Shown one piece after another: positions 13,198 to 34,345 of a stretch of 64,000 nt of DNA (positions within the stretch are counted from its first letter, which is position 1; every line of letters begins with the position of its first letter). The notes beneath the pieces were generated by a model, which saw nothing but the letters and a program-made list of their open reading frames with translations, did not search any database and was not told where the DNA came from. Made by a program: the position numbers and the translations under genes. The DNA comes from Oscillospiraceae bacterium (lineage in GTDB: Bacteria > Bacillota > Clostridia > Oscillospirales > Ruminococcaceae), in the NCBI GenBank assembly GCA_016281125.1, contig JAEEIA010000098.1, positions 1 to 64,000 on the forward strand, in the 5' to 3' direction.

Positions 13198-13920
13198 ATG
13201 GACGAAACCAGGCACATCAGTGAAGTCTGCAAGGAACTGAACACAACCTCGCGGACAATCCGCTACTACGAACAGCTCGGTCTGGTCAGCACTGTGCGCG
13301 GCAGCCGGAACGCGCCGCGCAGGCTTGATGAACAAAATACCGCACAGCTGCGAAAAATTCTCTTTCTGCGGAAGATCGGACTGTCACTGGATGAGATTCA
13401 GGACATTGTTAAGAACGGGCTGGATGTCGCAGAACTGCTGCGAACCAAATCCGCGGAATTCAAGGCGGAAATCGCTGCGCTTCACAGCCGGATCCGGCTG
13501 CTGGAAAAGGTCACAAGCACAGCGGAAAAGGGCGGCGATATTTACGCTGTTGCGCTGGATGCATCCCCGGCGCAGGAGGATGCGGAGCACTGCCGGATTG
13601 CGGCGGAGTGTATCCGGCTTCTTCTGGAGCATCGCTTTTCGGAGATTCCTGCCTTTGTGGCGCCAAAGCTGCGGCCGGCTTTTTCAGAAGAGCTTCTCTC
13701 CATATCATGGCATGAATTTACCGAACCGTGCGGTGCATTCATAGAAACGGGCGCGCAGACCGTCGAAGGCAATCTTGTCAAAAATCATCTGTATTTTGAG
13801 AAAATGGGCGCTGTTATCACAATCGCCTTCGGAGAAGACGGCATCAAAGGAATCATGTCCAATTACCTGAAAGAAAAGGAGAATCCTCATGTTTCATCAA
13901 AGCGTACTGGAACGAATTGA
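13198..13920 (+). CDS. MerR-family transcriptional regulator
   Basis: 240 aa from ATG 13198; a GTG at 13189 in the same frame is an alternative, but GGGTGAT is better placed for the ATG. The MerR DNA-binding domain is clear: HISEVCKELNTTSRTIRYYEQLGLV, then ILFLRKIGLSLDEIQDIV. A dimer helix covers ~75-105. The C-terminal ~120 residues hold HEFTEPCGAF and a GNLVKNHLYFEKMGAVITIAF segment resembling a small ligand domain, ligand unknown. It has its own 19-bp-spacer promoter and overlaps the next gene by 32 bp, so the two are co-transcribed. Confidence 0.9.
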   Translation: MDETRHISEVCKELNTTSRTIRYYEQLGLVSTVRGSRNAPRRLDEQNTAQLRKILFLRKIGLSLDEIQDIVKNGLDVAELLRTKSAEFKAEIAALHSRIRLLEKVTSTAEKGGDIYAVALDASPAQEDAEHCRIAAECIRLLLEHRFSEIPAFVAPKLRPAFSEELLSISWHEFTEPCGAFIETGAQTVEGNLVKNHLYFEKMGAVITIAFGEDGIKGIMSNYLKEKENPHVSSKRTGTN

Positions 13921-14626
13921 CGTCATCGCGCACAGCGGCATCCGCATCGGCGGCGAAACGATCATCTATATTGATCCGGTGCAGATTTCCGGCGCGCCGC
14001 ATGACGCTGACCTGATCCTTTTTACGCATCCGCATACCGACCACTTTTCACCGCGGGATGCGAAAAAGCTGATGAAGGACAGCACCGTCATCGCGGCACC
14101 GAAAAGCATGGCCGCAATGATTCGTCTGACACTCCGGAAAAAGCCCGTGACGCTGCTGCCCGGTCAAAGCACAGAGCTCGCGGGAATCCCGGTCTGCGCC
14201 GTCGCGGCCTATAACAAGCGCAAGCCGAATCACCTGAAAGCGATGAAGTGGCTCGGTTATATCCTGACAATCAGCGAAACAGCGGTCTATGTATCCGGAG
14301 ATACCGACCTGACCGATGAATGCCGGGGTGTATCCTGCGATATCGCGCTGCTGCCGGTCGGCGGCTTCTATACGATGGATCCGGTGCAGGCAGCCGCGCT
14401 CGCAAATGCGATCACACCGCACACGGTCATTCCGGTTCATTACGGCAAGCTGCTCGGCGGTGCGGACGCTGCCGAACGGTTCCGCAGCGCGCTGAACCCG
14501 GGCATTCAGGCGGATATCCGGCCGTCTGCATACAGCAATATCATGATTTCGCAGTATGCAAGAGCGGCACTGCTGCTCATTCCGGCCGTTGTGCTTTTCT
14601 TCGTGCTGCGCAGTTTCCTTTGCTGA
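13889..14626 (+). CDS. UlaG-like metallo-beta-lactamase-fold hydrolase with C-terminal membrane helix
   Basis: 245 aa. The MBL motif THPHTDHFSP (HxHxDH) and VSGDTDLTDE supply metal ligands, and VIPVHYGKL a later His. This matches the UlaG/RomA-like subgroup, often Zn- or Mn-dependent phosphodiesterases or lactonases. The last ~20 residues (ALLLIPAVVLFFVLRSFLC) form a membrane helix, unusual for this fold, so the enzyme is probably tail-anchored. AAGGAG precedes the ATG, which lies inside the 3' end of the MerR gene; co-regulation by that MerR is likely. Confidence 0.88.
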   Translation: MFHQSVLERIDVIAHSGIRIGGETIIYIDPVQISGAPHDADLILFTHPHTDHFSPRDAKKLMKDSTVIAAPKSMAAMIRLTLRKKPVTLLPGQSTELAGIPVCAVAAYNKRKPNHLKAMKWLGYILTISETAVYVSGDTDLTDECRGVSCDIALLPVGGFYTMDPVQAAALANAITPHTVIPVHYGKLLGGADAAERFRSALNPGIQADIRPSAYSNIMISQYARAALLLIPAVVLFFVLRSFLC

Positions 14627-14654: not shown

Positions 14655-14699
14655 AGGGGACGCCCCCTGTCGCAGGGCGTCCCCTCAGTTTGTCAATCC
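14655..14699 (+). terminator. GC-rich hairpin with conserved tail
   Basis: AGGGGACGCCC (14655-14665) / GGGCGTCCCCT (14675-14685), then TCAGTTTGTCAATCC. It lies between the MBL gene and the converging serpin gene and can stop transcription from the MBL side. The tail recurs near other stems (see findings). Confidence 0.65.
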
Positions 14700-14718
14700 A
14701 TCGGAGATACCGCTATCA
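14696..14718. repeat. copy A of the ATCCATCGGAGATACC repeat
   Basis: ATCCATCGGAGATACCGCT ends ~15 bp from the serpin stop codon. It matches one arm of the element at 16934-17008. Confidence 0.75.
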
Positions 14719-14727
14719 ATCACCGCT

Positions 14728-16224
14728 TCACGCCGCCGGATTGTTGACGATGCCGACGAACAGGGGCATACCGGCGTCACTGACGATCTCAAACAGGAAC
14801 GGTCTGTCCAGCACAAATTCATACTGCTCTGTCGGTGCGCCTGTGCAGGTGAACTCCAGAACCGTAAGTGCTGCCGCCTTGCAGCCTGACTCGTCAATCA
14901 GCACGCGCGCATCCTGCTCGGCCTTGCTGAGATACACATTTTCCGCATCCGCTGCGTTCGCAGTCAGCGGCGAGAAATCCGCCTTGTCCGGTTCAAAAAT
15001 ATCCGTAATGCCGAGTGCTTTCAGCCCGTCCTCCAGATTCATGCCGGAGGACACATCAAACTTCGGCACGGTCATGTTTACAAACGCATACCGCTCATTT
15101 GCAGCGGCTTCCTGCTGCGACTGCGTCAGATATTCACAGACCTGCGCATCTGCGAGCAGTTCCTCCGGGGAAATGCCTTCTTCCGGCAGAATCAGCCGCA
15201 TCTGGCCGTTATGCTCCAGATCCAGCCCGACCGCCGTGAAATGCGCTCCGGAATAATACCCCGTTTCGTGATACGCAAACATGAAATCACAGCTGACATC
15301 GCCGTCCGGCGCATGGAATGTTCCTGCTTCGGTCAGCGTCCGGTCAAACTGACTGCTCCACTTTCCGCTGTAATTGACCGTTGACGCAATCATCAGCAGC
15401 ATCTCCGGATCCATTCTGATACCGTCCGTGTAATCCGCAAGCAGCCCGTCTGTCTGCTGATTCATCCATTCCTGCATCAGTTTGCTGTATGCATCGCGCT
15501 TCGGATCGCCGCTGAACACAGAGGCATAATACACCGATGCAAGCGTATCCAGCGTTTTCGAGCGGTAATCCGTCAGCTGATTTGTCCACAGTGAGGATGC
15601 CAGCACGCATTTTGCAAGCCCGTCGTCCGCATAATTCGCCTTCCAGACCGATTCTGCATGGGATCGCAGCGTTTCCAGATCCTTCTGCGCGAGAACTTCC
15701 AGAATCTGCTGACGCGTATTCCCGTCCGTGATTTCCGCAGACATGCCGAGCGCCATATACAGACTCAGCGGCGAATAAACACGGTTTTCAGATCCGGCAC
15801 CGTTCAGAAAGACCGGCGTGCTGTTTGCAAAGAATACGTCAAATCCCTCCTGATAGCCCTCCGGCTGATCCCGCAGCGCACTGCGCGCCGCCTGCCATGT
15901 TTCCAAAGCGGCACTGTATTCATCCCAGTTTTCGTCCGCAGGCGTCTCCGGATACTGCGGCATGTCCGGATAAGCCGCTTGGGCCAGCAGCATATCGGCA
16001 TACTGCGCCGAATAATCGTTTTTTCCCGATCCCGGGCTGCCGCCGGGCGTCCCGCGCTTCGGAATCAGAAACAGCCCGCCGATCACGGCTGCCGCACAGG
16101 CAGTGCCGATCACCGTCAGCATGATGCGCGGATGCTTTTTCGTTTTTTTGCCCGCTGTCAGCTCCGGCACGAGCGTTTCATCGGCTTCCCCGATCACATC
16201 CAGCAGAATATCCCTGTTTTTCAT
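14728..16224 (-). CDS. membrane-anchored serpin with anti-sigma-like N-terminus
   Basis: 498 aa from ATG 16224 (AGGAGGGG upstream), overlapping the sigma gene by ATGA. Residues 1-32 are cytoplasmic (KNRDILLDVIGEADETLVPEL), similar to short N-termini of ECF-linked membrane proteins. A membrane helix lies at ~34-55, a linker to ~125, then a full serpin fold. Visible are NRVYSPLSLYMALGM, MLLMIASTVNYSGKW, ITDIFEPDKADFSPL, and near the C-terminus a reactive loop with hinge ESGCKAAALT (from ~445) followed by DRPFLFEI and LFVGIVNNP. By counting from the hinge, the scissile residue is near the Thr before GAP. It would trap serine or cysteine proteases outside the cell. Confidence 0.92.
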   Translation of the reverse strand: MKNRDILLDVIGEADETLVPELTAGKKTKKHPRIMLTVIGTACAAAVIGGLFLIPKRGTPGGSPGSGKNDYSAQYADMLLAQAAYPDMPQYPETPADENWDEYSAALETWQAARSALRDQPEGYQEGFDVFFANSTPVFLNGAGSENRVYSPLSLYMALGMSAEITDGNTRQQILEVLAQKDLETLRSHAESVWKANYADDGLAKCVLASSLWTNQLTDYRSKTLDTLASVYYASVFSGDPKRDAYSKLMQEWMNQQTDGLLADYTDGIRMDPEMLLMIASTVNYSGKWSSQFDRTLTEAGTFHAPDGDVSCDFMFAYHETGYYSGAHFTAVGLDLEHNGQMRLILPEEGISPEELLADAQVCEYLTQSQQEAAANERYAFVNMTVPKFDVSSGMNLEDGLKALGITDIFEPDKADFSPLTANAADAENVYLSKAEQDARVLIDESGCKAAALTVLEFTCTGAPTEQYEFVLDRPFLFEIVSDAGMPLFVGIVNNPAA

Positions 16225-16772
16225 ACGCCGATCCCCTCCTGTTCCAGATATGCTTTCAGTCTGCTCCGCACTCTTTGCAGGAGCATTTTGACCGCGCCCT
16301 CTGACATGGCATACCGTTTCGCGACCTCGCTGACGGACATCATGTACCAGTACCGCAGCAGAAAAATCTCGCGGTTTTTCTCCGGCAGACTGCGCAGAAA
16401 CGTATCCAGCAGTTCCTTCAGCGCGAGCCTGTCCTCCACCGGGCTTTCCTCCCCGATGCATTCGCTCAGCTCGTCGAGGCAGAGCGCGGTCTGGCCGCTG
16501 CCGTATTTCTGCGCCTTGCCTTTGCGGAAACGGTCGATTGCAAGATTGCGCGTGATTCTGCCGAGGAACACCGCAAGCCGGTTCGGCTTTTCCGGCGGGA
16601 TGGTATCCCATGCACGCATCCACGTATCATTGACGCATTCCTCGGTATCCTGCACGGAATGCAGAATATTGCGGGCGACCGCCGTGCAGTACGCGCCGTA
16701 TTTGATCTGACTTTCCTTGATTGCAGCTTCATCTCTCTGCCAGAACAGCCTGATGATCTGTTGATCTTCCAT
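16221..16772 (-). CDS. ECF-type RNA polymerase sigma factor
   Basis: 183 aa from ATG 16772 with AAGGAGG upstream (a longer frame adds 8 residues without an SD). Sigma region 2 is around ILHSVQDTEECVNDTWMRAW and RITRNLAIDRFRKGK. Region 4 is around LPEKNREIFLLRYWYMMSV and the HTH MSEGAVKMLLQRVRSRL. Region 3 is missing, as in ECF sigmas. It is translationally coupled (ATGA) to the membrane serpin. An ECF-type promoter at 16803-16829 suggests autoregulation. Normally such a sigma is held at the membrane by its downstream partner. Confidence 0.95.
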   Translation of the reverse strand: MEDQQIIRLFWQRDEAAIKESQIKYGAYCTAVARNILHSVQDTEECVNDTWMRAWDTIPPEKPNRLAVFLGRITRNLAIDRFRKGKAQKYGSGQTALCLDELSECIGEESPVEDRLALKELLDTFLRSLPEKNREIFLLRYWYMMSVSEVAKRYAMSEGAVKMLLQRVRSRLKAYLEQEGIGV

Positions 16773-16802
16773 GATGCACCTCCTTGCCGCCTTCACCCTT
16801 AC

Positions 16803-16829
16803 AGACGAAAAACAGGGCGCGCAGGTAAC
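16803..16829 (-). promoter_or_regulatory. ECF-type promoter of the sigma-serpin operon
   Basis: Minus-strand GTTACC (16824-16829), 16 bp, CGTCT (16803-16807), matching the AAC/TACC...CGTC pattern of many ECF promoters. The predicted start is ~20 nt before the sigma SD. I saw no second copy of this pair in the window. Confidence 0.65.
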
Positions 16830-16933: not shown

Positions 16934-17008
16934 CGGTATCTCCGATGGATTCATAATGGGACGGGGCTTGGGGACGGAGTCCCCATTTTTGATCCATCGG
17001 AGATACCG
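16934..17008. repeat. 75-bp element with 17-bp perfect inverted ends (copy B)
   Basis: CGGTATCTCCGATGGAT (16934-16950) and its exact complement at 16992-17008 flank a core containing CATAATGGGAC and the palindrome GGGGACGGAGTCCCC. It begins 11 bp after the U32 stop codon. Single arms recur at 14696, 34307 and, diverged, 36060. Part of the core recurs at 25519. No coding capacity. Confidence 0.85.
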
Positions 17009-34306: not shown

Positions 34307-34345
34307 GCGTCCCATTATGAATCCATCGGAGATACCTCTTTATCA
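34307..34345. repeat. copy C of the ATCCATCGGAGATACC repeat
   Basis: CGTCCCATTATGAATCCATC then GGAGATACCTCTTTATC. Matches copy B (minus strand) over ~35 bp and ends ~7 bp from the tatD stop codon. Confidence 0.82.

What the first reader, a model, noticed from the sequence alone, without database searches (positions are those of the whole stretch)
14728..16829. ECF sigma factor coupled to a membrane-anchored serpin: possible protease-sensing system
The sequence shows ECF sigma and serpin genes sharing an ATGA overlap, with an ECF-like promoter (GTTACC-N16-CGTCT) before the sigma gene. The serpin carries a short cytoplasmic N-terminus and one membrane helix, in the place where ECF operons usually encode an anti-sigma factor. 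Known: serpins change shape irreversibly when a protease cuts their loop, and gut Firmicutes carry secreted serpins. Inference: cleavage outside could pass a signal across the membrane and release the sigma factor, so inhibitor and sensor are one molecule. I know of no described example.
Basis: partly seen in the sequence, partly recalled or inferred. Interest (0 to 1): 0.78.

Follow-up and report, generated by a model that had tools for sequence, protein, structure and literature searches.

The report
Membrane serpin doubling as anti-sigma factor
A gut-type bacterium carries a protease-trapping protein (serpin) whose inner tail looks like the brake on a gene switch made by its neighbour gene, so that an attacking protease could turn on the making of more inhibitor; the same gene pair recurs in many related bacteria.

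Summary
An ECF sigma gene (16221-16772, -) overlaps by ATGA a gene for a 498-aa protein: about 33 cytoplasmic residues, one membrane helix, a serpin domain (residues 144-496). The pair recurs. All 30 close ECF genes in this genome are followed by a gene with a similar N-terminus plus one helix; only the window one carries a serpin. In a GTDB scan, 57 of the best 80 relatives have an ECF gene directly in front, overlapping the serpin gene (50 by -4). Over 51 pairs the N-terminus varies with the sigma factor (partial r 0.80) and hardly with its own serpin (0.10). The promoter GTTACY-N16-CGTC is kept in 5 of 5 members of this sigma clade. All 35 linked serpins keep a largely canonical hinge, with departures at P14 and P9. 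Best reading: the serpin is the membrane regulator (probably anti-sigma) of its ECF factor, protease trap and sensor in one, autoregulated. RsiV of Bacillus subtilis is the precedent (anti-sigma, lysozyme receptor and inhibitor). Sigma binding, inhibition and protease response are untested. The full-text searches made showed no description of a serpin in this role.

The parts
16221..16772 (-). ECF sigma factor gene, 183 aa (regions 2 and 4)
   Evidence: 30 matches with E below 1e-30 in own genome (itself included)
14728..16224 (-). gene for membrane-anchored serpin, 498 aa, overlapping the sigma gene by ATGA
16126..16224 (-). cytoplasmic N-terminus (residues 1-33), the supposed sigma-binding (anti-sigma) segment
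   Evidence: similar N-terminus in 29 other own ECF partners, by eye; ranks above all controls with their profile, though weakly (E 0.51); co-varies with ECF
16063..16119 (-). single membrane helix (19-residue maximum at residues 36-54), basic residues on its N side
   Evidence: hydropathy
15796..16062 (-). linker (variable between relatives) and conserved pre-serpin segment AxYPxMxxYP...W (residues 55-143)
   Evidence: alignment; predicted ordered from about residue 71
14737..15795 (-). serpin domain (residues 144-496)
   Evidence: Pfam E 1e-60; nearest solved structure tengpin
14797..14892 (-). hinge and reactive-centre loop, E445 (P17) to F476, ESGCKAAALTVLEFTCTGAPTEQYEFVLDRPF
   Evidence: invariant residues
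16803..16829 (-). ECF-type promoter GTTACC-N16-CGTCT, supposed autoregulatory site
   Evidence: conserved in 5 of 5 members of the ECF clade; genome counts
16779..16785 (-). ribosome-binding-like AAGGAGG before the sigma gene
   Evidence: sequence

Best explanation
The two genes form an autoregulated sigma/regulator pair. The serpin protein is a single-pass membrane protein: its about 33 N-terminal residues hold the ECF sigma factor at the membrane (anti-sigma role, inferred), and its serpin domain faces outside as a suicide bait for serine proteases. This, or cleavage of the now exposed flexible linker, starts stepwise proteolysis of the membrane stub; the N-terminus is destroyed and the sigma factor is freed. 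The freed sigma factor transcribes its own operon from the GTTACC-N16-CGTCT promoter and so makes more serpin, until fresh uncut serpin binds the sigma factor again. Shown here by sequence: pair, overlap, topology by hydropathy, conservation, promoter conservation, hinge conservation, co-variation of N-terminus with sigma. Inferred: sigma binding, inhibition of a protease, cleavage-driven release, identity of the protease.
For: Own genome: all 30 ECF genes of this group (E below 1e-30) are followed by a gene starting with a MKxxDLLxAIGxIDExxIEEA-like stretch (judged by eye, some loosely) and one hydrophobic helix; 29 of 30 have a start codon at -4, one at -14 (the script preferred a start at -4). 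Pfam of the 29 other partners at E up to 0.01: PASTA in 3, sub-threshold matches in 2 (dockerin, MNHE), none in 24, no serpin. Other genera: 14 of the 29 loci fetched hold an ECF-joined serpin; 24 of 30 (3 repeats, so 21 new); 57 of 80 in a GTDB scan, all 57 overlapping. Linked serpins sit in one supported group (100/100) that also holds nine rows labelled unlinked. N-terminus tracks sigma: r 0.87; partial r given serpin 0.80 (0 of 2000 permutations as high); N-terminus with serpin given sigma 0.10 (51 pairs). Promoter kept in 5 of 5 of the clade, 0 of 32 outside it, with no sign of a wide regulon by exact match. Hinge: E at P17 and G at P15 in 35 of 35, A or G at P12 and A or S at P10 in 35 of 35, T at P8 in 34 of 35. 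A serpin of the same group has a different ECF type and a different N-terminus before its helix (L177). In the window's own genus another ECF type sits with its own anti-sigma-like gene upstream of lipoprotein-type serpins in 17 of 20 regions chosen. Precedent: RsiV (PMC5014341, passages).
Against: No binding, inhibition or response data. The window's own N-terminus scores poorly against the profile of its paralogues (E 0.51, above all 17 unlinked serpins and all 483 window open frames, but not significant alone). No known anti-sigma domain was found in it by Pfam, and the structure model has low confidence there (residues 1-70). P14 is C, V, L or I and P9 is Y, F, L or M in 35 of 35, unlike the T/S and small residue recalled for classical inhibitory serpins. 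The co-variation could partly be hitch-hiking, since the N-terminus is encoded next to the sigma gene; the membrane helix also co-varies, more weakly (partial r 0.31, also 0 of 2000). In 23 of 80 GTDB loci no ECF gene directly precedes the serpin gene (3 of them near a contig end; in 5 of the 23 an ECF gene follows downstream). In the window's genus only this genome has the fused form (1 of 30; 26 of 30 have some serpin match). The five promoter-bearing sigma factors are close relatives, so part of the site's conservation may be common descent, though the spacers differ.
Confidence: 0.6

Rival explanations
1. Effector only: the N-terminus is an anti-sigma segment, but the signal is a different envelope stress acting on the membrane-near part; the serpin is cargo that the freed sigma factor helps to make and place at the surface, and its cutting is not the signal.
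For: 24 of the 29 other partners have outer domains without any Pfam match and 3 have PASTA, so the scaffold serves other cues. Separate ECF - anti-sigma-like - serpin operons in the genus show that a serpin can be placed near an ECF gene without being the fused partner.
Against: A plain target need not be fused to the sigma partner. The fused form recurs widely (57 of 80), and a serpin of this group also sits behind another ECF type (L177).
Confidence: 0.25
3. The N-terminus is not an anti-sigma segment but a mere membrane anchor or a positive co-factor; the gene pair is co-transcribed for other reasons.
For: No Pfam anti-sigma domain; the segment is short, about 33 residues; the window's own profile match is weak.
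Against: Serpins of the same group with lipoprotein-like or other anchors mostly lack an ECF gene in front. The N-terminus tracks sigma far better than it tracks the serpin. A similar motif stands in all other own ECF partners.
Confidence: 0.08

Closest known systems
SigV/RsiV of Bacillus subtilis (lysozyme)
   Same: Membrane partner of an ECF sigma factor whose ectodomain binds and inhibits the attacking enzyme; autoregulated operon that makes more inhibitor until the enzyme is sequestered (PMC5014341, passages)
   Different: Ectodomain is not a serpin (Pfam finds only a serpin above cut-off here); enzyme is a muramidase, not a protease; signal-peptidase cleavage is shown there and untested here
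Anti-sigma factors with sensory ectodomains in clostridia (RsgI of Clostridium thermocellum, carbohydrate modules)
   Same: Membrane regulator of an alternative sigma factor with a sensory extracellular domain (passages)
   Different: RsgI belongs to SigI, not to an ECF factor (recalled), and senses polysaccharides; no serpin
Tengpin and other bacterial group T serpins (siropins, miropin, B. longum serpin)
   Same: Nearest solved serpin by sequence (4e-33) and by fold; tengpin's N-terminal tail stabilises the native state (PMC8233489, passage)
   Different: The word 'sigma' does not occur in that paper; no coupling to a sigma factor in the passages seen
Bifidobacterium serpin under a two-component system (SerRK)
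   Same: Serpin production under a dedicated signalling system (recalled; PMC7822027 seen only as a search listing holding the terms)
   Different: Sensor and serpin are separate proteins there (recalled); here they would be one
Membrane-anchored bacterial serpins (Clotm-serpin 3; class noted by Spence et al. 2021)
   Same: Serpin tied to the membrane (passages)
   Different: No sigma partner mentioned in the passages seen; 'sigma' occurs in neither paper

Membership tests
Serpin (Pfam PF00079) | Serpin fold over its full length | tested here: met
   Residues 144-496 match profile 19-370 of 370, E 1e-60; Foldseek tengpin E 6e-28
Inhibitory serpin | Hinge with E at P17, G at P15 and small residues at P12-P10 (rule recalled) | tested here: met
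   Window ESGCKAAALT; E and G in 35 of 35 linked serpins, A or G at P12 and A or S at P10 in 35 of 35; P11 is A in 25, else V, S or T
Inhibitory serpin | T or S at P14 and a small residue at P9 (rule recalled) | tested here: not met
   C, V, L or I at P14 and Y, F, L or M at P9 in 35 of 35; most unlinked relatives in the same table share this
Inhibitory serpin | Covalent complex with, and inhibition of, a serine protease | not testable with these tools
   needs purified protein
ECF sigma factor | Sigma regions 2 and 4 in a short protein | tested here: met
   183 aa; Sigma70_r2 3.7e-11, Sigma70_r4_2 1.9e-12; TIGR02937 above cut-off
Membrane anti-sigma factor of an ECF factor | Gene co-located with and overlapping the ECF gene, N-terminus inside, one helix | tested here: met
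   (topology by hydropathy and positive residues only)
Membrane anti-sigma factor of an ECF factor | Known anti-sigma domain in the N-terminus | tested here: not met
   no Pfam family over residues 1-70 at E up to 10, within HMMER's filters
Membrane anti-sigma factor of an ECF factor | N-terminus binds and silences the sigma factor | not testable with these tools
   only indirect: co-variation
RsiV | RsiV-type lysozyme-binding ectodomain | tested here: not met
   Pfam finds only the serpin above cut-off
Cellulosomal serpin | Dockerin module | tested here: not met
   no dockerin match in the protein at E up to 10

The most novel reading that the evidence does not exclude
A serpin's one-way change of shape serves as a single-use transcription switch: each membrane serpin is at once trap, sensor and brake on its own sigma factor, so a cell counts protease hits and replaces just the inhibitor it lost. 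The design would be widespread in gut clostridia and rebuilt more than once with different ECF types.
Probability: 0.35. Interest if true: 0.9.

Novelty: new variant of a known kind. Interest (0 to 1): 0.74.

Why it matters
If true, gut bacteria of this order would have a receptor that reads serine proteases of host or neighbours directly and answers by replacing the inhibitor. That would give serpins, known as inhibitors, a role as receptors in bacterial gene control; show that the RsiV design (inhibitor, receptor and anti-sigma in one) is a recurring solution; and make the question of what membrane serpins of gut bacteria are for directly testable with one promoter reporter and one loop mutant.

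Tried and rejected
One search read minus-strand loci in the wrong orientation and is superseded. A scan of genome contigs with the single window protein found no relative; with the alignment 419 places, of which the best 80 were kept. Viral contigs gave none. The idea that the serpin was a chance neighbour was dropped. The idea that the pair belongs to the window genome's own ECF expansion was dropped: 28 of the other 29 own ECFs form one group (99/94) and the window ECF groups with those of other genera (100/96). The idea that the 16-base repeats around the pair mark it as a mobile cassette was not kept: the repeat has 150 copies in the genome. A second own-genome hit of the exact promoter motif (G000:C24) lies inside a long open frame and was taken as chance; the two other extra hits (L179, L186) were not examined. 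A rigid shape relay through the membrane was rejected for linker variation. The structure model gives no help on the N-terminus (pLDDT below 50). Rows dropped: one search started from 57 linked GTDB pairs, left out 2 with a sigma sequence under 150 residues, added the window (56) and cut to 51 by similarity; linker length was measured in 39 of 51, and the maximum of 416 there is a motif mismatch. One search dropped 5 of 70 rows that did not match the serpin domain. One search left out three rows (L111 and L115, repeats of serpin loci L123 and L132, and L117). In one search the start used for L131 was five codons late. In one search the loop pattern matched 35 of 35 linked rows but only 23 of the 35 other rows, some of which are not serpins.

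Full report
WHAT IS THERE. On the minus strand, 16221-16772 encodes a 183-residue ECF sigma factor and 14728-16224 a 498-residue protein; the genes share ATGA. The second protein has about 33 N-terminal residues rich in charge, one strong hydrophobic helix (19-residue maximum at 36-54), a linker with a conserved pre-serpin segment, and a serpin domain at 144-496 (Pfam E 1e-60). The next long open frame downstream that I take for a gene (13889-14626) is on the other strand, so the operon probably has two genes.

THE PAIR BELONGS TO A FAMILY OF PAIRS. Searching the window's genome with the sigma protein gives 36 matches; 30 (the window one included) have E below 1e-30. Each of these 30 is followed by a gene whose protein starts with a short stretch resembling MKxxDLLxAIGxIDExxIEEA (judged by eye, in some only loosely) and then has one hydrophobic helix; 29 of 30 have a start codon at -4 and one at -14 (in which the script preferred a start at -4; one search is superseded). 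Three of the six weaker sigma matches were also looked at; their neighbours do not show the motif. The outer parts of the 29 others, at E up to 0.01: three with PASTA, two with sub-threshold matches (dockerin, MNHE), 24 without any Pfam match. So the genome holds a set of sigma/partner pairs with different outer domains, and the window pair is the one with a serpin. A profile made from the first 26 residues of the 29 other partners ranks the window protein and 14 linked serpins of other genera above all 17 unlinked serpins and all 483 window open frames, but the window's own E-value is only 0.51.

THE SERPIN PAIR RECURS. Among 396 genomes of the same family, 62 have a match at E up to 1e-30; of 29 loci fetched beyond the window's own (L119-L147), 14 hold a serpin joined to an ECF gene, 12 with the -4 overlap, one -8, one -23. 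Among 394 genomes of the order, 61 match the alignment profile at E up to 1e-80, in 38 of 169 genera (not all of these are ECF-linked). Of 30 loci fetched there, 24 have the ECF gene joined (19 at -4; 3 of the 24 repeat known ones), L167 has a same-type ECF about 250 bases upstream, L177 has an ECF of another type, and 4 have none in the stretch read. In named GTDB genomes 419 places encode relatives; of the best 80, 57 have the ECF gene directly in front, all overlapping (50 at -4, 5 at -8, one -14, one -23), 20 have none in front and 3 lie near a contig end. In 5 of these 23 an ECF gene follows the serpin gene instead, and 16 of the 23 have a lipobox-like stretch near the N-terminus by a loose pattern. 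In the window's own genus the fused form occurs in 1 of 30 genomes, while 26 of 30 have some serpin match; a 55-residue match to the N-terminus alone was seen in one other and not followed.

EVOLUTION. In a tree of 58 sigma factors the window one groups with those of L119, L120 and L122, all serpin-linked (100/96), then with L102 (100/99), whose partner is cut by the end of the available DNA after 80 residues, so its outer domain is unknown. The other own sigma factors, 28 of 29, form a separate set (99/94). Serpin-linked sigma factors are spread over several groups; supported sisters L103, L105, L107 and L112 show no serpin in the stretch held. This fits exchange of outer domains and arrival of the window pair from another genus (inference). 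In a tree of 65 serpin domains the 35 linked ones sit in one group (100/100) together with nine labelled unlinked, several of them sisters of linked ones (rooted at the midpoint for drawing only). Two of those nine do have an ECF gene: L167, distant but same type and with the motif, and L177, of another type, 15 bases ahead, with another N-terminus. Thus the coupling seems to have been made more than once (inference).

CO-VARIATION. On 51 non-redundant pairs the pairwise distances of the N-terminal segment follow those of the sigma factor (r 0.87) more than those of the serpin on the same chain (0.56); sigma and serpin give 0.60. Given serpin distance the N-terminus/sigma correlation is 0.80 (0 of 2000 permutations as high); given sigma distance the N-terminus/serpin correlation is 0.10. 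Caveat: the N-terminus is encoded beside the sigma gene, so joint inheritance of one block is not excluded; the helix also co-varies, less (0.31, also 0 of 2000).

PROMOTER. GTTACY-N16-CGTC begins 57-88 bases before the start codon in WIN, L119, L120, L122 and L102, with different spacers, and the strict pattern (spacing 14-19 allowed) is in none of the 32 other upstream regions; about 1.1 of 37 would be expected in shuffles. Over the five whole genomes the pattern extended by T occurs 8 times, five at the sigma gene, against 39 for the reversed control. That speaks for autoregulation and against a large set of exact-match targets; degenerate targets are not excluded. Other groups have other promoter forms; many show a GTGAAAGG-like stretch just after it, by eye.

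LOOP AND FOLD. All 35 linked serpins keep E at P17, G at P15, A or G at P12 and A or S at P10; 34 of 35 have T at P8; P14 is C, V, L or I and P9 is Y, F, L or M, as in most unlinked relatives of the same table. The numbering is mine by comparison with the recalled consensus. The window loop has small residues near the likely cut, which would suit elastase- or subtilisin-like enzymes (inference). The best structure model has mean pLDDT 73 (the other four 40 to 66), mostly 70-90 in the serpin part and below 50 in residues 1-70 and 458-469; nearest solved folds are tengpin and other serpins. In tengpin an N-terminal tail stabilises the native state (PMC8233489, passage), so the conserved pre-serpin segment could couple serpin state to linker exposure; this is speculation, and the segment is also present in unlinked relatives.

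A SECOND ARRANGEMENT. In the window's genus another ECF type lies upstream of its own anti-sigma-like gene (N-terminus MRxTNEEFxAEV plus helix) and then lipoprotein-type serpins. It was found in 17 of 20 regions that I chose from the serpin hits of 18 genomes (own genome at C7:44993-42179 included); the exceptions are L199, L202 (only 754 bases held) and L204, the last with a window-type ECF. In 5 of 6 such regions read frame by frame a further lipoprotein-like gene lies between. Serpins near ECF genes therefore recur in this group by more than one route.

COMPARISON WITH WHAT IS KNOWN. It works most like SigV/RsiV, where the anti-sigma factor binds and inhibits lysozyme and the operon makes more of it until the lysozyme is sequestered (PMC5014341, passages). 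It is not RsiV by family. Full-text searches for serpin with anti-sigma and ECF (one paper, unrelated, passages read), serpin with sigma factor and Ruminococcus (four papers; passages of two read), and protease inhibitor with anti-sigma factor, sensor domain, ECF and serine protease (one, unrelated by the start of its abstract) gave no description. The library holds open-licence papers only, and the ECF classification paper I asked for was not held. Other papers seen in passages: PMC8999054, PMC8233489, PMC6718151, PMC5127057.

VERDICT. Observation confirmed; interpretation partly supported and strengthened in its central point; mechanism untested. Odds are as first written; the mended counts did not require a change.

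Noticed in passing
14696-14711 (-), 16935-16950 (+), 16992-17007 (-), 34321-34336 (-): A dispersed 16-base repeat GGTATCTCCGATGGAT, partly as hairpins, flanks the pair; 150 copies with at most one mismatch in the genome, 0 for the reversed control.
   Followed up: partly
L203, L080 (own genome C7:44993-42179) and L187-L206: ECF of another type, anti-sigma-like membrane protein, often a lipoprotein, and lipoprotein-type serpin form a conserved arrangement in the window's genus, 17 of 20 regions chosen.
   Followed up: yes
L177:868-2988: A serpin of the same group sits behind a different ECF type with a different N-terminus and helix: an apparent independent coupling.
   Followed up: partly
own genome, 29 loci (L069-L096): Large set of ECF/partner pairs with mostly unrecognised outer domains, three with PASTA: an unexplored sensor repertoire.
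   Followed up: partly
upstream of ECF genes in many loci: A GTGAAAGG-like stretch follows the -10 element in many of these ECF operons, in several genera, by eye; function unknown.
   Followed up: no
G014:C21:952-1110: In another genome of the genus a 55-residue match (47%) to the serpin's N-terminus lies in a 219-aa frame that was not reported as a serpin.
   Followed up: no
own genome C7:66784-76894 (L097): Cluster of six serpin genes far from the window serpin in the tree.
   Followed up: no
L131, L238, L239, L255, L256, L273: Serpin gene followed downstream by an ECF gene; in L131 a second, ECF-joined serpin follows.
   Followed up: partly
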